DNA of 63,986 nucleotides from a virus. The notes beneath the pieces are model-generated. The model saw only the letters and a list, made by a program, of their open reading frames with translations. It did no database searches and had not been told where the DNA came from. Shown one piece after another: positions 1 to 63,901 of this stretch. Numbering within the stretch: position 1 is the first letter of the stretch; the number at the start of each line of letters is the position of its first letter. The position numbers and the translations under genes were made by a program. The stretch covers positions 1 through 63,986 of the IMG/VR virus record IMGVR_UViG_3300043392_000024. One strand, written 5' to 3'.

Positions 1-127
1 CCCGAAGGGGCTGTTGTTTTAACTCCTAAAGAAATTAAATAGGCAATACCTTTATAACATCTTCTGCTAAAATACCCCTGTGGCATTCAAATTGTCTAGG
101 GGTATTTTTATGTCGAGGGCACCAATC
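1..127. repeat. Terminal direct repeat, left copy (circular contig overlap)
   Basis: These 127 bases are identical to 63860-63986. The fibre-operon gene at the right end runs through the junction and its stop codon is seen in both copies (about 40 and 63901). The exact length of 127 is a common maximum k-mer in de Bruijn assembly. I therefore infer a circular or circularly permuted genome of 63859 bp, not a biological terminal repeat. Confidence 0.95.
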
Positions 128-2071
128 CCAGTCTGACTTATCAAATTTTAATTCAGGATCGTTCCAGCATCCATTGCATACATCTTTGTTAGTTACTCTA
201 ATGCAGTTGCTTACGAATTCATGCCCTTCCTTAGAGAAGTTTGCAATCATAACTGTCTTAACTCCAAGTCCCCAAGCAAGCCAACTTACTCCAGATCCTA
301 ATCCAATAAAGAAGTCGCTATTTTTTATCAAAGACATCGTGTCATTTATGTCTTGGTTTATTATCTGCTCGCAATTATCGAATGGATTTTCTTCTAGCGA
401 TACATTAATCACCTTGCATCCTTTCTCGTGTAGGTAGTTAATCACTCCTTGCCATCCCTCCTTAGTCCAAAATTTGCATCCTGCTGTAGAATTTGTAGCT
501 ATGGTAACAATTTTTTTAGCAAATATGCCAATAGGGGCTTTTGTTGGTTTGTATTTTAGTTTAGGCTTAATCTCTTCAAATTCTAACCCTAAAATATTAG
601 TCGCAGCTTGCTGTAGTGGTATAGTATTAGGCAATGCCGGCTCCTTGTTTGAGTCGTAGAACCAACCGATGTTATATTGTGCTGCGATGTTATGAACAGT
701 TGTTCCAGGCTCTACCATTTCTATCTCAGGAATGTCCAGTATTTTGTTCCAAAAACTTGACAAAATAACTTTGCAATCATGCTTCTTTTGAAACTCTAAA
801 GCATATGGAGCCCAAGCGATTGTATCTCCAAGTGATTTACTATCAATAGAAATCAAAACACGCTTTCCTTTCAAATCAAGCGTACTTTCGTAAACCTTCT
901 CCCCTTTCTCGTATACTTCAAGCGACCATTTCTCGTAGTATTGTCTGTTTAATTTAGCCCAAGAATTGTTTTGAATTGTGTTCTCATAAACAACTTCACC
1001 TGTACCTGTTTTCCATACTAGGTGGAACCAACATTTGGCATGAGATTTTATCTCGATAAAAGGTCCGTTAACATTATGCTCTATAATCTGAACATCTTGA
1101 TCCTCTATTGGATTTTCTAATGTTATCTTGTATAAGTCTGATAGTCTCTTCTTAAACCATTCAGATGTTTGATCTCTTGGTGTAATATAATTAGCCTTGA
1201 TTGTATTTAAGTCTGTATCGATAGGTTGAATATATTGTGCATAACGACCATAATATTGTGGCAAGTTATGAGCAATGATTGGCAAGTTGTATTCAATAGC
1301 CTCACGCAACGCAAGTGGGTTGCATTCAATTGTACTATTGAACATAAAGACATGAGCACTTTTAAGGGAATCATCTACGTCATCTCGCTCACCAGCCACA
1401 ATTACATTCTCTGGCAAATCTTTCATCAAAGGCTCCCAATACTCTTGAAAATTTCCTGCTTGATTACCTATGAATATAAACTTCCAATCAGGGTTCTTTC
1501 TTGCAATCTCAATCCCCTCTGCTTGATTCTTACCTGGTGTCCACAATCCAACATTAACTACATTTTTTGTTTTTATCTTTTTAGATTCTTTAGGATCAAT
1601 CGGGAATTCAATTACATACTTTGCCTTAGTAGGCATATCCTTAAATGTAACCGCTTTGTGGTAAACTGAGCAGAATGCATATGCATCAGGATGGAACTTG
1701 CGTTCTTTGTCAGGATTAAAGAACACATCATGGCAAGTCTCAACAATTCTGTATGTACGAGACGTATTATACAACTCACACATAGTGTCGTAGTCAAATC
1801 TCTCAGCCACATCGTGAAGATGTATAATGTCGGGATTAATAATCGATACGATATCCAATAGTTCCGATTTGGTATCACCAAGAGTATATACTTTGTTACC
1901 AAGTATCTCTTTGATTGCATTGCGATGCACCACAAAATCCGCTGTGTAGAACTGATATTCTACTACGTGGATGTCAAATATTTCGTTTAGTAACTCTACT
2001 TGTTTTAAAAGAAAAGATGGCATACCACCGGTAGATAGGTGTGGTGCTAGGTAGAGAATTTTGGATTTCAT
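35..2071 (-). CDS. Two-domain glycosyltransferase: GT4-like N-terminus, TibC/BAHT-like C-terminus
   Basis: A 678-residue protein with two glycosyltransferase halves. The first half (about 1-310) is a GT-B fold of the GT4 type: a Gly-rich start with STGGMPS, the DIIHLHD segment, and an EX7E motif (ECNPLALRE) that in the family contacts the sugar nucleotide. A short beta-rich linker follows. The second half (about 400-678) resembles heptosyltransferases (GT9), with SKSLGDTIAW near its start and GLGSGVSWLAWGL near the end. It ends in four Cys, C632, C635, C651 and C663. Their first three spacings (2 and 15) match the iron-finger of TibC-type autotransporter heptosyltransferases as I recall it. 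It reads leftward and converges on the fibre genes across the circle junction. Its 3' end contains the antisense terminator hairpin. I infer protein or fibre glycosylation; modification of host surface glycan or phage DNA are alternatives. Confidence 0.8.
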   Translation of the reverse strand: MKSKILYLAPHLSTGGMPSFLLKQVELLNEIFDIHVVEYQFYTADFVVHRNAIKEILGNKVYTLGDTKSELLDIVSIINPDIIHLHDVAERFDYDTMCELYNTSRTYRIVETCHDVFFNPDKERKFHPDAYAFCSVYHKAVTFKDMPTKAKYVIEFPIDPKESKKIKTKNVVNVGLWTPGKNQAEGIEIARKNPDWKFIFIGNQAGNFQEYWEPLMKDLPENVIVAGERDDVDDSLKSAHVFMFNSTIECNPLALREAIEYNLPIIAHNLPQYYGRYAQYIQPIDTDLNTIKANYITPRDQTSEWFKKRLSDLYKITLENPIEDQDVQIIEHNVNGPFIEIKSHAKCWFHLVWKTGTGEVVYENTIQNNSWAKLNRQYYEKWSLEVYEKGEKVYESTLDLKGKRVLISIDSKSLGDTIAWAPYALEFQKKHDCKVILSSFWNKILDIPEIEMVEPGTTVHNIAAQYNIGWFYDSNKEPALPNTIPLQQAATNILGLEFEEIKPKLKYKPTKAPIGIFAKKIVTIATNSTAGCKFWTKEGWQGVINYLHEKGCKVINVSLEENPFDNCEQIINQDINDTMSLIKNSDFFIGLGSGVSWLAWGLGVKTVMIANFSKEGHEFVSNCIRVTNKDVCNGCWNDPELKFDKSDWDWCPRHKNTPRQFECHRGILAEDVIKVLPI
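70..107 (+). terminator. Hairpin terminator of the fibre operon
   Basis: A 10-bp perfect stem (AAATACCCCT at 70-79, AGGGGTATTT at 98-107) is followed by T-rich DNA. Rightward transcripts from the fibre genes reach it across the circle junction. It lies inside the 3' coding end of the convergent glycosyltransferase. The same hairpin is seen again at 63929-63966. It could work in both directions. Confidence 0.75.
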
Positions 2072-2095
2072 TTTTTAATTAATTAGATTAGCAAA

Positions 2096-2103
2096 CAAAT
2101 ATA
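2096..2103 (-). promoter_or_regulatory. Bacteroidota -7 element for the glycosyltransferase
   Basis: Minus-strand TATATTTG matches TAnnTTTG and lies about 25 bases before the glycosyltransferase ATG. It is divergent to the plus-strand element at 2116-2123. No clear -33 TTTG is seen. Confidence 0.6.
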
Positions 2104-2115
2104 AAAGGAAAATGC

Positions 2116-2123
2116 TAAATTTG
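2116..2123 (+). promoter_or_regulatory. Bacteroidota -7 element for the packaging operon
   Basis: TAAATTTG matches TAnnTTTG and lies 23 bases before the first rightward gene. The spacing between the two divergent -7 elements is only 12 bases, so RNA polymerase binding at the two may compete. Confidence 0.6.
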
Positions 2124-2146
2124 CATATTACTTTAATAAAATAACA

Positions 2147-2401
2147 ATGAAAAAATTAGAAGAAGAAGAATTAACTCGCCTTAACGAAGTAACTAAAAGC
2201 CTTCGTGAAGCACGCACAACAATTGCAGATATTGAGCTTTCTTTAAATCGATTAAAGACTCAAAAGCAGTCAGTATTATTTAATGCTGAGAAATTCGCTG
2301 AAGAACTAAACAACATCCAGGGGGAAATGCATCAGAAATATGGTAACGTATTGATCGATATCGTAACTGGGGAAATCAAAGAACAAAATGCTGATTCGTA
2401 A
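2147..2401 (+). CDS. Small coiled-coil protein
   Basis: An 84-residue, charged, helical protein. Heptad-like spacing of Leu, Ile and Val runs through about residues 1-60. It is the first gene of the rightward packaging/virion operon and its 3' end overlaps the next gene by 14 bases. I do not recognise a family. A head or packaging accessory role would fit the position, but nothing in the sequence proves it. Confidence 0.7.
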   Translation: MKKLEEEELTRLNEVTKSLREARTTIADIELSLNRLKTQKQSVLFNAEKFAEELNNIQGEMHQKYGNVLIDIVTGEIKEQNADS

Positions 2402-2606
2402 AATATCTATTGGTCCCGATTATAAGAATGCGATGAACTATACTCATGGGCAAGAAGTCCTTGATAAGTCTTATCGTATTCATTTGATCACACAAAAGGA
2501 CGATGGTGCGGTTAGTATTTTTATTGAGAAGAATACTGAAATTATTCTTTGGAAATGTATTGGTGCAACCACCCCATTTGTCCTCGAGTATAATATCGAG
2601 TTCTAA
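2388..2606 (+). CDS. Hypothetical protein, 72 aa
   Basis: A 72-residue protein rich in beta-forming residues (for example VSIFIEKNTEIIL). It is tightly packed between the coiled-coil gene (14-base overlap) and the GroES-like gene (its last base is the first base of the next ATG). Translational coupling is likely. No family recognised. Confidence 0.65.
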   Translation: MLIRKISIGPDYKNAMNYTHGQEVLDKSYRIHLITQKDDGAVSIFIEKNTEIILWKCIGATTPFVLEYNIEF

Positions 2607-3190
2607 TGAAATCTCCATTTTATTTTATCGTAAAGCCAAAAGATGGTAAGCGATATGATGATGAGCGTAATGGCATCATCTTATCCACGTCTAAGGAAGA
2701 TTACAAGACAGCCACACGTGAGGCTATTGTAATCGAAACGCCTATTGGATACGAAGGTCCTATTCAGGTTGGCGATACTGTCATTGTACATCACAACACA
2801 TTTAAGTATTACTATGATATGCGTGGGCGTGAGAAGTCATCGTGGAATTATTTCCGTGATGATTTGTTTTTCATTGATGATCCGTACGCATACAAGCATG
2901 AGTGTGATACATGGAAAGGAATCGGCCGATACGTATTCATTGAGCCTGTTGAGAACGACCATACAGGCATTACTACAATTGATGCAGAAAAGCCTCTTGT
3001 AGGCAAGATAAAGTATGCGAATGATGAAGTACTAGACCTTGGTCTTAAAGTGGGCGATATGGTCACATTTGAGCCCGAATCGGAGTATCCTTTTTGGATT
3101 GATAATCAGAAGGTTTATCGTATGTACACAAAGAACCTAACCATCATATTAGATGAGCAAGATAACCGAGTTAAAGAAGCGAATAATTGA
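2606..3190 (+). CDS. GroES/Cpn10-like protein, possibly a tandem two-domain form
   Basis: A 194-residue protein whose first half resembles a co-chaperonin beta-barrel: FYFIVKPKDG, then GIILSTS (mobile-loop region), a TATREAIV strand and QVGDTVIVHHNTF. The second half repeats the pattern with GRYVFIEPV, LVGKIKYAN and LKVGDMVTFEPES, so it may be two Cpn10-like folds in tandem. A classical phage GroES also exists at 57124-57381. Its place just before the terminase suggests a virion-assembly role, as with T4 gp31, but this is inference from a weak fold resemblance. Confidence 0.55.
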   Translation: MKSPFYFIVKPKDGKRYDDERNGIILSTSKEDYKTATREAIVIETPIGYEGPIQVGDTVIVHHNTFKYYYDMRGREKSSWNYFRDDLFFIDDPYAYKHECDTWKGIGRYVFIEPVENDHTGITTIDAEKPLVGKIKYANDEVLDLGLKVGDMVTFEPESEYPFWIDNQKVYRMYTKNLTIILDEQDNRVKEANN

Positions 3191-55374: not shown

Positions 55375-56916
55375 ATGATAGTTAAAAATGTAGAGTCTGG
55401 CGAAATTGCTAGACAAAAATTAATTAAAGGTGTTGATACGGTTGCAAATGCTGTAGGATCTACTCTTGGTGCCAGAGGTCGCACAGTTCTGATGGAATCG
55501 GAGAACCATGTTGGTGGCATTATTGTCACAAAAGATGGCGTTTCGGTATCGAAAGGTGTAAATCTTATGGATCCTACCGAGAACCTAGCGGTGATGATCA
55601 TGCGTGAGGCATCAGAGAAGACTGCTAACTCAGCAGGCGATGGGACAACGACAAGTATGGTGCTGGCACAGGCCATCATCCATGAGGCCATGGACCAAAT
55701 TGAGCCGAGCGACAACTTAACGCAAGTATTGCGTGACATCCAAGAGGCGAGCACAGAGGTGCTGACAAAGTTAGATGAGATGTCGGTCGAGATTACTGAT
55801 GACAAGCTTCAGTCTGTTGCTACAATCTCTGCTAATGGGGACACGGACACAGGGTCAATTATCGCTGATGCGTACAGTAAGGTGGGGCTGACAGGTGTGG
55901 TGACAGTAGAGCCATCCAAGGATGCGTTGACATACTCGGAGATTATTAGTGGGATGAAGGTGGACAGAGGGTACACGAGCAAGTATTTTGTGACTGACCA
56001 TAAGAAGCAAGAGTGTGTGCTAGATGACCCATATATTTTGGTGACTGACCAACCTATTAGCCACATTAATGACATCTTCCCAATACTTGAGTATATACTT
56101 GAGGGCAACAAGTCATTATTAATCATTGGCGAGTTGGAGGAGAATGCTCTGAACACGCTGAACGCCAACAAGATTAAGGCTAAGTTAAAGGTGTGCACAA
56201 TTATGCCTCCACAGTTTGGCTACAAGAAGCATCAGTTGATGCAGGACATAGCGACATCGGTTGGGGCTAAGTATTTTAGTGAGCAAACAGGGGACAACTT
56301 GGCGATGGTGAGCATCGATGACCTGGGCCGTGCCAAGAAAGTAATCAGCGGTCGGTTCAACACACTTATCCGTGAGCCGGGTGGCTTGGTGGACGAGCGA
56401 GTGGCTGAGCTGCAAGAGCAATTAAACGTGGAGACGAGTGCGATCGAGAAAGAATTCTTAAAAGAGCGGATCGCTAACTTGGGCGGTGGCGTGGCTGTCA
56501 TTTATGTTGGTGCTCAGTCTGACATTGAGCAGAAGGAGAAGAAGGACAGAGTAGACGATGCGGTGTGTGCTGTGAGAGCTGCATTGGAGGAGGGTATCCT
56601 GCCAGGTGGTGGGGTGGCACTAAAAGATGTTGCTACTTCAACAAATATAAAAAATAAAGGGGCAGATATATTAATGCGTGCTTTGATGGCACCTATGATC
56701 AAGATTATTCAGAATGCAGGTGGGGCAAAAGAAAATTTGGACGTATGCTCTAAAGAAGGCGTTGGGATCAATGTGGTGAACATGGCCACGGCTAACATGA
56801 TGGACATCGGGATCATCGACCCAACGAAGGTGACAAAAGAGGCTGTGAGAAATGCAGTCAGCGTAGCAACTACGTTGCTGTCAACAGATACGGTCATCAC
56901 TAATATTCGGGCATGA
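55375..56916 (+). CDS. groEL: Phage GroEL-like chaperonin (Cpn60)
   Basis: A 513-residue group I chaperonin, against about 545 in bacteria. The ATP site is intact: TKDGVSV, GDGTTTSMV (the GDGTTT loop), the catalytic-Asp region RVDDAVCAVRAALEEG followed by LPGGGVAL. The apical domain is complete (RGYTSKYFVT, LLIIGELEENAL). The flexible GGM tail of bacterial GroEL is missing; it ends in VITNIRA. It folds proteins in an ATP-driven ring and is followed by a matching groES. It diverges clearly from typical host GroEL. It likely folds large phage proteins such as capsid, portal or hub. Confidence 0.95.
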   Translation: MIVKNVESGEIARQKLIKGVDTVANAVGSTLGARGRTVLMESENHVGGIIVTKDGVSVSKGVNLMDPTENLAVMIMREASEKTANSAGDGTTTSMVLAQAIIHEAMDQIEPSDNLTQVLRDIQEASTEVLTKLDEMSVEITDDKLQSVATISANGDTDTGSIIADAYSKVGLTGVVTVEPSKDALTYSEIISGMKVDRGYTSKYFVTDHKKQECVLDDPYILVTDQPISHINDIFPILEYILEGNKSLLIIGELEENALNTLNANKIKAKLKVCTIMPPQFGYKKHQLMQDIATSVGAKYFSEQTGDNLAMVSIDDLGRAKKVISGRFNTLIREPGGLVDERVAELQEQLNVETSAIEKEFLKERIANLGGGVAVIYVGAQSDIEQKEKKDRVDDAVCAVRAALEEGILPGGGVALKDVATSTNIKNKGADILMRALMAPMIKIIQNAGGAKENLDVCSKEGVGINVVNMATANMMDIGIIDPTKVTKEAVRNAVSVATTLLSTDTVITNIRA

Positions 56917-57123: not shown

Positions 57124-57381
57124 ATGCGAGTAATAGGAAATAATATTTTAATCGTCCCTTTTGAAGAAGAGACAAAATCAAAAGGGGGCTTATTGATGTC
57201 AGCATCTGACACAAAAGAGCTAAGATACAAAAAAGCAACTGTGGTTGCTGTTGGTGATCTTGCCACGAGTGTTAAGCCTGGTAACTTTATCTACTTTGAT
57301 AAGGCAGCAGGGCATAGCATCCGTGTAAATGAGGACATCTACACGGTGATACGCTTGCAGGATGTGGTAGTTGTGCTATAA
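57124..57381 (+). CDS. groES: Phage GroES-like co-chaperonin (Cpn10)
   Basis: An 85-residue co-chaperonin. MRVIGNNILIVPFEEE gives the first strand, the mobile loop region is KSKGGLLMSA (compare GGI/VL in bacteria), followed by KKATVVAVGDLATSVKPGNFIYFDK and EDIYTVIRLQDVVVVL. The length is a little under bacterial GroES (about 95). With the phage GroEL it probably makes a complete chamber. Its last 6 bases overlap the convergent winged-helix gene. Confidence 0.9.
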   Translation: MRVIGNNILIVPFEEETKSKGGLLMSASDTKELRYKKATVVAVGDLATSVKPGNFIYFDKAAGHSIRVNEDIYTVIRLQDVVVVL

Positions 57382-60968: not shown

Positions 60969-63476
60969 ATGGCAAGAATTAGTACATATCCAAGTGACAA
61001 TAATGTTATAGGAGCAGATAAGTGGATTGGTTCCGATGCAAATAATAACAATCAAACCAAGAACTTTACAGCCGATGCAGTAGCAGCTTATTTTAATAAG
61101 GCTAGTGCTATCGATACAGGTCAATTCTCTTGGAATTTCGTTGCCTATTCAAGTACTGTTACTCAGTATGACAAAACATTTTCATTAGTTGGGTATACTA
61201 ATACAAGTATTGGTGTTAACCAGTTAGAAGGTATCTTAAAAGTATCTTTCTTAACTCTTGCAAATACAACTCCAGGCACATTTATTGCAGAGCAATGGCT
61301 AAATAAAATTATCCTTGTTCATATCCCTAATAACCCATCTTCTTACGGATTATATAGAATTACTAATATTTCTTTAGTTGGTGATTTTTATTATTTAACT
61401 ACTGACTTACAAGAGGCATCTACAGGAACTATTTTAGCAAACACTCCTGTTTCTTTTGGTCTTTTCGAAGGTGTATCAGGTACTAACGGAACATCCGGAA
61501 GCTCAGGAACGTCAGGGTCAAGCGGAATTAATGGTACTATGGGTACTTCAGGATCGTCAGGTACTACAGGTACTTCAGGATCGTCAGGCACCACAGGTAC
61601 TTCTGGAAGCTCAGGTACTACAGGTACATCAGGTACTACAGGTACTTCAGGATACTCTGGTGATAAATATCGTGGCACATCTACTACTTCATTTACATTA
61701 GGAAATGCAGGAACCATTACAACCCAAGTAGGGCTATCATATACTCCAGCACAATCTATTATCATTGTTTACAATGCTAATAATTTCCAAGAGTGCGAGG
61801 TTATAAGTTACGACTCTGGTAATGGATTACTAACATTTGCTGCACCAACACGAACTGTTGGTTCGGGTACATATACTTCTTGGACAATTAACTTGGATGG
61901 TGCAAGTGGTGGCGATGGATCTTCAGGTACTTCAGGTACATCAGGGGCAAATGGTACAAGTGGAATAAATGGTACGAGTGGTAGCTCAGGATTTAGCGGA
62001 ACTAGTGGTATAAGTGGAACCTCAGGTACGACAGGTACTTCGGGATCTAGCGGTATTAGTGGTACATCAGGAACAAGTGGGGTAGATGGTACATCCGGTA
62101 CAACAGGAACATCAGGATTTAATGGATCAAGTGGAACTACAGGTACATCAGGTACTAGTGGGTTAACAGGTACATCAGGTACATCAGGACAGAATGGTAT
62201 TTCTGCTGGTCGTACTTACTACTTTAATCAGTCGCAGTCTTCTAGCATTTCTCCATATAAAATTTTAGCAGAACAGCCTTCCGGTGCTATTCAGCAAGTT
62301 GTTACTACTAGCTTGTCTGGTAGTCAATCTGGTGCGTTGGTAAGCAGTTTTATTACTGAGGAGTTAGGGTTTCCTATTATCCCAAGTGGTATACAAAGGT
62401 TTAATCTACATTATTTAAAACCTGCATCTAACGATAACATTGAAGTATATGTTACGATACAACTGGCTGATTCTTCAGGAACGCCTATTGGACCTGTTAT
62501 ATCATCTGGCGTTGACTTAATTGGATGGGTAGATGCTTCGACTCCTGTAGACGTACCTATCGACATTGTGCTTCCAACAACAGGTATTGATCCTACATAT
62601 AGGATGATTGCTAAATTGTATTTAACAAATTTAGACAGCACATCACATAATGTTAGTTTTTACACAGAAGGTACTTCTTATTATTCTTTTGTTCTTACAT
62701 CGGTAGGTGCAGTTGGTGGAACTTCAGGAACCTCAGGTACAAGTGGTGTATCTGGTACATCTGGTGTTAGTGGGACTTCGGGCGTTAGTGGAACAAGTGG
62801 GATTGATGGAACAAGTGGTATAAATGGTGCCAATGGCACTAGTGGTGTCGATGGAACATCTGGAGTAAATGGTACGAGTGGCGTTAATGGTGCAAATGGT
62901 ACCTCAGGAGTAGATGGTACTAGTGGCGTAAGTGGTACGTCAGGAGTTTCAGGTACATCAGGTGTAAATGGAGCGAACGGAACATCAGGTGTAAGTGGTA
63001 CTTCAGGTACTAGCGGAGCAGCTGGAGCAAGTGGTACATCAGGAGTTAGTGGAACAAGTGGTGTGTCAGGTACAAGTGGTACTTCGGGTCCATCGTACAT
63101 CTCACTTTACTCAACTACTGTGACGATTAATAGTGCCGGTGGTTTTGCAGGTAACTACGGAACACTTATCCCAATTAACACGCTTACATATAACGGTGTT
63201 TATATTATCAGAATTAGATACGTATCATCTTATTCTCCATATTACATTAGTACTGTAATTACATATTGCCCTGCTAGTGGTAATGCTTCGGATCAGCAGA
63301 CAGGATTTGAGTTTTATTCATTAACATCTGCTGGTAATGGTACCGACTCTTACATGGGATTCTTAGGTAAGTCGGCAGGAAGTGGTGGTGTAGGTGGTAT
63401 ATATGCTAAATTCCCTTATGGTAACGTTAATGCCGGAGGAGGTACAGCATATGTCGATTGTTATAGAATATATTAA
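60969..63476 (+). CDS. Collagen-like tail fibre protein, 835 aa
   Basis: An 835-residue fibre. The N-terminal 165 residues are a mixed attachment domain (ISTYPSDNNVIGADKWIGSD at the start). Three Gly-X-Y blocks follow: about 168-231, about 310-413 and about 580-708. They are dominated by GTS, GSS, GTT, GVS, GVN and GAN, and contain almost no Pro. Between them lie globular beta domains. The last 125 residues (after GPSYISLYS) form a receptor-binding-like end. Gly at every third residue over long blocks indicates a trimeric collagen-like helix. Ser/Thr in X and Y positions could be glycosylated by the enzyme encoded downstream. Confidence 0.85.
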   Translation: MARISTYPSDNNVIGADKWIGSDANNNNQTKNFTADAVAAYFNKASAIDTGQFSWNFVAYSSTVTQYDKTFSLVGYTNTSIGVNQLEGILKVSFLTLANTTPGTFIAEQWLNKIILVHIPNNPSSYGLYRITNISLVGDFYYLTTDLQEASTGTILANTPVSFGLFEGVSGTNGTSGSSGTSGSSGINGTMGTSGSSGTTGTSGSSGTTGTSGSSGTTGTSGTTGTSGYSGDKYRGTSTTSFTLGNAGTITTQVGLSYTPAQSIIIVYNANNFQECEVISYDSGNGLLTFAAPTRTVGSGTYTSWTINLDGASGGDGSSGTSGTSGANGTSGINGTSGSSGFSGTSGISGTSGTTGTSGSSGISGTSGTSGVDGTSGTTGTSGFNGSSGTTGTSGTSGLTGTSGTSGQNGISAGRTYYFNQSQSSSISPYKILAEQPSGAIQQVVTTSLSGSQSGALVSSFITEELGFPIIPSGIQRFNLHYLKPASNDNIEVYVTIQLADSSGTPIGPVISSGVDLIGWVDASTPVDVPIDIVLPTTGIDPTYRMIAKLYLTNLDSTSHNVSFYTEGTSYYSFVLTSVGAVGGTSGTSGTSGVSGTSGVSGTSGVSGTSGIDGTSGINGANGTSGVDGTSGVNGTSGVNGANGTSGVDGTSGVSGTSGVSGTSGVNGANGTSGVSGTSGTSGAAGASGTSGVSGTSGVSGTSGTSGPSYISLYSTTVTINSAGGFAGNYGTLIPINTLTYNGVYIIRIRYVSSYSPYYISTVITYCPASGNASDQQTGFEFYSLTSAGNGTDSYMGFLGKSAGSGGVGGIYAKFPYGNVNAGGGTAYVDCYRIY

Positions 63477-63487
63477 TTTTTAAGAGA

Positions 63488-63901
63488 ATGGCAAATACAT
63501 ATAAGTTTGATATTGTCCAGGTATTTACATCTGACATAGAGTTGAATAGCAACAAAGATGAACTAGTTGAAAAGATTGAATTCTCTTTGATAGGTTATCG
63601 TGATAATCAGAATACATTTATTATTGAGGATGTAGATATTCCAACTTCTTCAGGAGATATAATTCCTTATAACCAATTGGATAAAGATATCTTCGTTAGT
63701 TGGGTTATAAACTTTGTAGGAGAAGACAGAATAAATAAGATGAAAGCAAAGATAGATGCTAAGTTAGAGGAAATGGTAAACCATTTTGCTCAATTCGATA
63801 ACATCGATCAAGAAAAAACTATTAAATCAACATTGCCCCCATGGGTAAGTCTTGAAATACCCGAAGGGGCTGTTGTTTTAACTCCTAAAGAAATTAAATA
63901 G
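63488..63901 (+). CDS. Fibre-associated protein, 137 aa
   Basis: A 137-residue protein, acidic, with an N-terminal beta domain (KFDIVQVFTSDIELNSNKDELVE, FIIEDVDIP) and a helical end with IDAKLEEMVNHF. It lies 11 bases after the fibre gene, in the place of a fibre chaperone or small tail protein. The stop codon is inside the 127-bp terminal overlap. Function inferred from position only. Confidence 0.6.
   Translation: MANTYKFDIVQVFTSDIELNSNKDELVEKIEFSLIGYRDNQNTFIIEDVDIPTSSGDIIPYNQLDKDIFVSWVINFVGEDRINKMKAKIDAKLEEMVNHFAQFDNIDQEKTIKSTLPPWVSLEIPEGAVVLTPKEIK

What the first reader, a model, noticed from the sequence alone, without database searches (positions are those of the whole stretch)
35..2071. 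Glycosyltransferase fused from GT4-like and TibC-like halves, convergent on a Ser/Thr-rich fibre
The gene couples a GT4 EX7E half with a heptosyltransferase-like half ending in C632-x2-C-x15-C-x11-C. The first two spacings match the TibC-family iron finger as I recall it. It is the only gene on the minus strand next to the collagen-like fibre (60969-63476), which has long runs of Gly-Ser/Thr triplets. TibC enzymes O-glycosylate repeated Ser/Thr-containing strands on autotransporters. A phage that sugar-coats its own fibre is plausible, and glycosylated Thr would also stabilise a Pro-poor collagen helix.
Basis: partly seen in the sequence, partly recalled or inferred. Interest (0 to 1): 0.8.

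Follow-up and report, generated by a model that had tools for sequence, protein, structure and literature searches.

The report
Phage enzyme likely sugar-coating collagen-like fibres
A bacterial virus carries a two-headed sugar-attaching enzyme related to one that coats bacterial adhesins, and across many unrelated viruses such enzymes occur almost only alongside serine/threonine-rich, proline-free collagen-like fibres, which makes those fibres the probable target and suggests that many aquatic phages glycosylate their own fibres.

Summary
The 678-aa minus-strand gene at 35-2071 is a GT4 domain (invariant E249-x7-E257) fused to a TibC-type domain: TIGR04414 at 249 bits (cut-off 200), PDB TibC at E=1.6e-46, Foldseek TibC at E=3e-29 (target-length TM 0.81-0.84). 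All four iron-finger cysteines have TibC's exact spacing. The catalytic Asp, Thr, Lys and Trp are kept. TibC's adenine-reading Arg and oligomerising thumb are lost across the family.

The inferred substrate link is strongly supported by comparative genomics. TIGR04414 occurs in 20/50 viral contigs chosen for GTSG-type collagen, 1/45 chosen for Pro-rich collagen (the one that also has true GTSG repeats) and 0/46 generic contigs. Conversely, 34/40 contigs with the fusion carry GTSG collagen (37/40 counting Ser-rich variants) against 0/46 generic. In this phage's lineage, fibres sharing the same N-terminal anchor have a Ser/Thr collagen shaft in 11/11 contigs with the enzyme and 0/25 without; two of those without have Pro-rich collagen.

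Best reading: a phage protein O-glycosyltransferase dedicated to its own Ser/Thr-collagen fibre, probably building at least a disaccharide. Donor, actual modification and function remain unshown. An isolated phage, Microcystis phage Mel-JY01, carries the same pairing and could be tested directly.

The parts
35..2071 (-). Bifunctional GT4 - TibC-type glycosyltransferase, 678 aa
1097..2071 (-). GT4 half (residues ~1-325), E249-x7-E257
   Evidence: PF00534 E=3e-11; E249 and E257 invariant in 81/81
875..1096 (-). TibC-like N-terminal beta-barrel (residues ~326-399)
   Evidence: seven predicted strands at 327-397; Foldseek alignment spans ~370 of 381 TibC residues; Pfam PF21129 itself not detected
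38..874 (-). TibC-like catalytic domain (residues ~400-678); D416, T529, K533, W597 kept; T578 in place of Arg286
83..178 (-). Four-cysteine iron finger C632-x2-C-x15-C-x11-C663
   Evidence: spacing as TibC C339/342/358/370
60969..63476 (+). Collagen-like fibre, 835 aa, proposed acceptor
   Evidence: PF01391 E=2e-38; phage tail-fibre PHROGs; 31% Ser/Thr overall, the most Ser/Thr-rich of the 20 window ORFs checked
61470..61667 (+). Ser/Thr collagen block 1, 22 triplets
61917..62204 (+). Ser/Thr collagen block 2, 32 triplets
62718..63095 (+). Ser/Thr collagen block 3, 42 triplets
60969..61148 (+). Fibre N-terminal anchor shared with enzyme-less relatives
63488..63901 (+). 137-aa ORF (DUF7936 / phrog_7802) between fibre and enzyme; its 3' end overlaps the enzyme's by a few bases across the junction

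Best explanation
The gene encodes a phage protein O-glycosyltransferase dedicated to the phage's own Ser/Thr-rich, Pro-free collagen-like fibre. The TibC-type half transfers the first sugar from a nucleotide-sugar onto Ser/Thr hydroxyls of the Gly-Thr-Ser repeats (Asp416 as base, iron finger as structural/acceptor-binding element), and the fused GT4 half probably adds a second sugar. Made separately from the late structural strand, it would act on fibre chains in the host cytoplasm before or during assembly, giving a densely glycosylated shaft. Shown: domain identity, kept catalytic residues, specific and lineage-controlled co-occurrence with Ser/Thr collagen. Inferred: acceptor, order of the two transfers, donor, timing, and purpose (stiffening or solubilising a Pro-free triple helix, or shielding/adhesion).
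For: Family and structure. Forward association: 34/40 fusion-bearing viral records >=40 kb have GTSG collagen vs 0/46 generic; three of the six exceptions also have Ser/Thr collagen, as GSSG repeats or a stub at a contig end. Reverse association: TIGR04414 in 20/50 GTSG-collagen contigs, 1/45 Pro-collagen contigs, 0/46 generic (Fisher p=4e-6 and 2e-7); the single Pro-collagen case is the only one of the 45 with true GTSG repeats (38 matches). Among low-GC contigs, 18/44 vs 1/29. Lineage control: 17 terminase-family records without the enzyme have no GTSG. Same-anchor fibres: Ser/Thr collagen in 11/11 with enzyme, 0/25 without. Proximity: GTSG within 10 kb of the enzyme in 20/34 vs 8.7 expected. 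Named phages: Microcystis phage Mel-JY01 has a TIGR04414 protein (317 bits) about 2.5 kb from a GSSGTSG collagen frame; the 735-kb LR756501 has 965 GTSG matches.
Against: No direct evidence of modification. About 60% of GTSG-collagen contigs lack TIGR04414 (many are fragments; other transferases were not tested), so the enzyme is not universally required. Three of 40 fusion records and the 636-kb LR756504 show no Ser/Thr collagen. Loss of Arg286 and of the thumb means donor and quaternary structure cannot be carried over from TibC. Records are related by descent, so the p-values overstate independence, although TibC-type domains in the GTSG set fall into 10 clusters at 50% identity and at least three architectures.
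Confidence: 0.77

Rival explanations
1. The enzyme modifies the host surface (LPS, capsule or a surface protein) for superinfection exclusion or receptor masking, and travels with collagen fibres only because both belong to adsorption modules of aquatic phages.
For: This is the usual reading of phage glycosyltransferases near tail fibres (PMC7029224; PMC10202952). GT4 and GT9 enzymes often act on LPS.
Against: The association is with Ser/Thr collagen specifically, not with collagen or fibres in general, and same-anchor fibres switch shaft type with the enzyme. The C half passes the curated cut-off of a protein O-glycosyltransferase family, whereas LPS heptosyltransferase I scores only 18 bits.
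Confidence: 0.12
2. The enzyme is a true autotransporter-type heptosyltransferase acting on a beta-helical strand-loop-strand protein, and the collagen link is indirect.
For: TIGR04414 is named for that activity.
Against: No NCBIfam autotransporter-repeat hit in the fibre or in seven other large window ORFs scanned, mostly structural; the thumb and adenine-reading Arg are lost; Ser/Thr collagen accompanies the family in most phages.
Confidence: 0.05
3. The co-occurrence is a shared-ancestry or habitat effect: low-GC aquatic (mainly Bacteroidota) phages happen to have both traits.
For: Most of these records are low-GC and the fusion family is well conserved.
Against: Same-lineage relatives without the enzyme lack GTSG (17/17) and similar-GC relatives have Pro-rich collagen instead (L113, L115, L117); low-GC controls give 1/29; the pairing spans genomes of 41 to 735 kb, a Microcystis phage and different enzyme architectures.
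Confidence: 0.06

Closest known systems
TibC / AAH, bacterial autotransporter heptosyltransferases (BAHT; TIGR04414; PDB 4rap, 4rb4)
   Same: Same domain order in the C half (beta-barrel, GT-B catalytic core, four-Cys iron finger with identical spacing), same Asp base, Thr/Lys phosphate binders and Trp; acts on Ser in repetitive extracellular structures.
   Different: Phage-encoded, fused to a GT4 domain, thumb deleted, Arg286 replaced by Thr, Pro300 replaced by Gly/Ser; associated with collagen-like fibres, not autotransporters.
SgtA/BclA3 of Clostridioides difficile
   Same: A transferase gene beside a collagen-like surface protein gene; adds O-linked GlcNAc to Thr/Ser of Gly-X-Y repeats (PMC7157674).
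   Different: Not known to be of the TibC family; acceptor repeats are Pro-containing GPT; a spore protein, not a phage fibre; no fused second transferase domain reported.
Mycobacteriophage virion glycosylation (Freeman et al. 2023, as cited in PMC12619734)
   Same: Phage structural proteins carrying glycans.
   Different: Glycans on capsid and tail-tube C-termini, not on a collagen-like fibre; the paper itself was not held here, so its enzymes were not compared.
Mimivirus collagen glycosylation (cited in PMC8968730)
   Same: A virus-encoded system modifying virus-encoded collagen-like protein.
   Different: Hydroxylation and glycosylation of collagen in a giant virus of amoebae; a different chemistry, to my knowledge on hydroxylysine rather than Ser/Thr.

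Membership tests
TIGR04414 / BAHT (TibC, AAH) | Score above curated family cut-off | tested here: met
   249.4 vs 200 bits
TIGR04414 / BAHT (TibC, AAH) | Fold of TibC including N-terminal beta-barrel | tested here: met
   AlphaFold pLDDT 90.5; Foldseek 4rap E=3e-29, TMt 0.81-0.84 over ~370 columns
TIGR04414 / BAHT (TibC, AAH) | Iron finger: four Cys with x2, x15, x11 spacing | tested here: met
   C632/635/651/663; C663 in 79 of 79, the other three in 80 of 80 sequences covering them; metal binding itself not testable
TIGR04414 / BAHT (TibC, AAH) | Catalytic Asp110 plus Thr226, Lys230, Trp305 | tested here: met
   D416, T529, K533, W597, invariant
TIGR04414 / BAHT (TibC, AAH) | Arg286 contacting the adenine of ADP-heptose | tested here: not met
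   Thr in 76/80; Arg kept in some thumb-bearing phage members
TIGR04414 / BAHT (TibC, AAH) | Beta-hairpin thumb needed for dodecamer | tested here: not met
   Residues aligned with F265/V266 deleted
TIGR04414 / BAHT (TibC, AAH) | Dodecameric ring | not testable with these tools
   needs purification and microscopy
TIGR04414 / BAHT (TibC, AAH) | ADP-heptose as donor | not testable with these tools
   needs enzyme assay
TIGR04414 / BAHT (TibC, AAH) | Autotransporter strand-loop-strand acceptor in the genome | tested here: not met
   no such NCBIfam hit in the fibre or in seven large ORFs; remaining smaller ORFs not scanned
GT4 glycosyltransferases (PF00534) | Profile match and EX7E motif | tested here: met
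   E=3e-11; E249/E257 invariant
Collagen-like phage tail fibres | Gly-X-Y triplet blocks in a tail-fibre-type protein | tested here: met
   PF01391 and tail-fibre PHROGs; triple-helix formation not testable

The most novel reading that the evidence does not exclude
A widespread but undescribed phage system: TibC-type enzymes, often fused to GT4, GT2 or methyltransferase-like domains, repeatedly recruited by unrelated phages (about 40 to 735 kb) to hyperglycosylate Pro-free Gly-Thr-Ser collagen shafts. Glycosylated Ser/Thr would replace proline/hydroxyproline as the stabiliser of the triple helix, making this a distinct class of virus-encoded glycocollagen.
Probability: 0.45. Interest if true: 0.88.

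Novelty: new variant of a known kind. Interest (0 to 1): 0.77.

Why it matters
Phage glycosyltransferases are usually explained as DNA or host-surface modifiers; few are linked to a specific virion protein. Here sequence comparison alone points to one enzyme family and one protein class, across many phages and with an isolated example, so phage fibre glycosylation becomes directly testable. It would also give a natural route to proline-free collagen and an enzyme for making it, and explain a common Ser/Thr-rich repeat in aquatic phages. I found no paper in the held library that joins heptosyltransferase, collagen-like and phage.

Tried and rejected
PHROGs has no family for the enzyme. The genome-collection scan found only one partial relative of the N half, in a Bacteroidetes MAG contig of 13.7 kb, so no cellular reservoir of the fusion was seen; that scan used two N-half peptide patterns only and would miss stand-alone TibC-type genes. 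The sigma-70 promoter scan near the gene gave no excess over shuffles. Mandatory opposite-strand arrangement was considered a defining feature (34/34 in the fusion family) and rejected as general because wider TIGR04414/collagen pairs include same-strand cases such as Mel-JY01. Amino-acid composition (low GC disfavouring Pro) was rejected because relatives of similar GC use Pro-rich collagen.

Full report
What is there. The record is a complete unit with a 127-bp direct terminal repeat, so its ends join. Gene 35-2071 on the minus strand (678 aa) lies across the junction from a collagen-like fibre at 60969-63476 on the plus strand, with one 137-aa ORF between them. By terminase the phage belongs with podoviruses of Flavobacterium, Cellulophaga and Tenacibaculum, at about 44% identity to the Flavobacterium phages, and is closer (67%) to the uncultivated Podoviridae sp. 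MW202828. Bacteroidota hosts are therefore inferred, not shown.

The enzyme. Residues 161-270 match GT4 (PF00534, E=3e-11) and E249-x7-E257 is invariant in 81 sequences. Residues 347-675 pass the curated cut-off of TIGR04414, the TibC/AAH family, and match PDB TibC at E=1.6e-46. AlphaFold on a 30-sequence alignment gives mean pLDDT 90.5, and Foldseek's 21 best PDB hits are all TibC chains, with target-normalised TM 0.80-0.84 over roughly 350-370 columns, including the N-terminal beta-barrel. Mapping through the PDB alignment and the published residues (PMC4358343): Asp110, Thr226, Lys230, Trp305 and Cys339/342/358/370 correspond to D416, T529, K533, W597 and C632/635/651/663, all conserved in the family. 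Two features are not met. Arg286, which reads the adenine, is Thr in 76 of 80; and the beta-hairpin thumb that joins TibC dimers into a dodecamer is deleted. Position 300, which sets heptose stereoselectivity, is Ser or Gly. The donor therefore cannot be assumed to be ADP-heptose, nor the assembly a dodecamer.

Distribution. A scan of viral contigs found 104 encoding this fusion (80 kept), nearly all full length. Only four annotated phage records encode the TibC half, and a genome-collection scan found one partial hit in a Bacteroidetes MAG contig (N-half patterns only). The fusion looks virus-specific, within the limits of those scans.

Is the fibre the partner? Four comparisons were made. 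(a) Given the enzyme: of 40 fusion-bearing records of at least 40 kb, 34 contain the DNA pattern for three consecutive Gly-Thr-Ser/Thr triplets, against 0 of 46 generic contigs of at least 20 kb. Of the six without it, two have GSSG-type Ser/Thr collagen and one ends in a five-triplet stub; three show none. (b) Given the fibre: contigs of at least 20 kb were taken by three DNA patterns. TIGR04414 was found in 20/50 with GTSG collagen, 1/45 with Pro-rich collagen and 0/46 with an unrelated ATPase motif. The one Pro-collagen exception is also the only one of those 45 with genuine GTSG repeats, 38 matches. With GC below 0.42 the contrast is 18/44 vs 1/29. (c) Same phage lineage: 17 terminase-family records without the enzyme contain no GTSG, whereas fusion records with a close (at least 78% identical) terminase all do. 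(d) Same fibre: fibres recognised by the window's N-terminal anchor carry a Ser/Thr collagen shaft in 11 of 11 contigs with the enzyme (12 rows, two from one contig) and in 0 of 25 without it; two of the 25 (L113, L115) have a Pro-rich collagen shaft, and the complete relative MW202828 has a non-collagen shaft. Some enzyme-less anchors match weakly (E up to 0.007), but those contigs hold both fibre and terminase, so the slot where the enzyme would lie is visible.

Caveats on the statistics. Records are related, so p-values overstate independence. Against a single shared event: TibC-type domains in the GTSG set form 10 clusters at 50% identity; architectures differ (stand-alone ~360-400 aa; GT4 fusions; one with methyltransferase-like and GT2 domains; a 1226-aa form in Mel-JY01); fusion records range from 41 to 326 kb with terminases from near-identical to undetectably related; and both a 735-kb phage and a cultivated Microcystis phage show the pairing. 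The enzyme lies within 10 kb of GTSG repeats in 20/34 records against 8.7 expected.

Mechanism. Shown: a TibC-type protein transferase with intact catalytic residues, a second intact GT4 motif, and specific partnership with Ser/Thr collagen, which in this genome is the most Ser/Thr-rich of the ORFs checked. Inferred: the TibC half primes Ser/Thr of the Gly-Thr-Ser repeats and the GT4 half extends the glycan. The repeats have 71-77% Ser/Thr and about 0.5% Pro at X/Y positions, so glycosylation may stabilise or solubilise a helix that lacks proline. The nearest functional analogue is SgtA, encoded immediately upstream of bclA3, which adds O-GlcNAc to Thr/Ser of that collagen-like protein (PMC7157674). 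That is a likeness in operation, not family membership.

Verdict. It is a new variant of a known enzyme family with a newly indicated acceptor class; chemical proof is lacking.

Noticed in passing
55375-56916, 57124-57381, 2606-3190 (+): The phage carries a GroEL-like gene (above a GroEL subfamily cut-off, below the GroEL equivalog cut-off), an 85-aa GroES-like ORF (read from its sequence and its position beside groEL, as in MW202828) and a second 194-aa GroES-like gene before the terminase.
   Followed up: partly
L579 (PP395634.1) 1-2300: In Microcystis phage Mel-JY01 the GenBank record annotates two minus-strand hypothetical proteins over a plus-strand GSSGTSGTRGTSG collagen frame, apparently antisense miscalls.
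   Followed up: partly
L524, L525, L526, L541: Phage TibC-type proteins that keep Arg286 also keep a longer thumb region, while most thumbless ones have Thr or Val: the two traits seem to vary together.
   Followed up: partly
61391-61765 and 62681-63100 (-): Pro/Val-rich minus-strand ORFs that look like antisense shadows of the collagen repeats, not genes.
   Followed up: partly
2071-2170 (-): TATATTTG, a match to the Bacteroidetes -7 box TANNTTTG as I recall it, about 30 bases upstream of the enzyme's start codon.
   Followed up: no
L539: A TibC-type domain fused to an FtsJ-like and a GT2 domain in a GTSG-collagen virus contig.
   Followed up: no
GTSG-collagen contigs G001-G050 without TIGR04414: Thirty of 50 Ser/Thr-collagen contigs lack the TibC-type enzyme; whether another transferase replaces it was not tested.
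   Followed up: no
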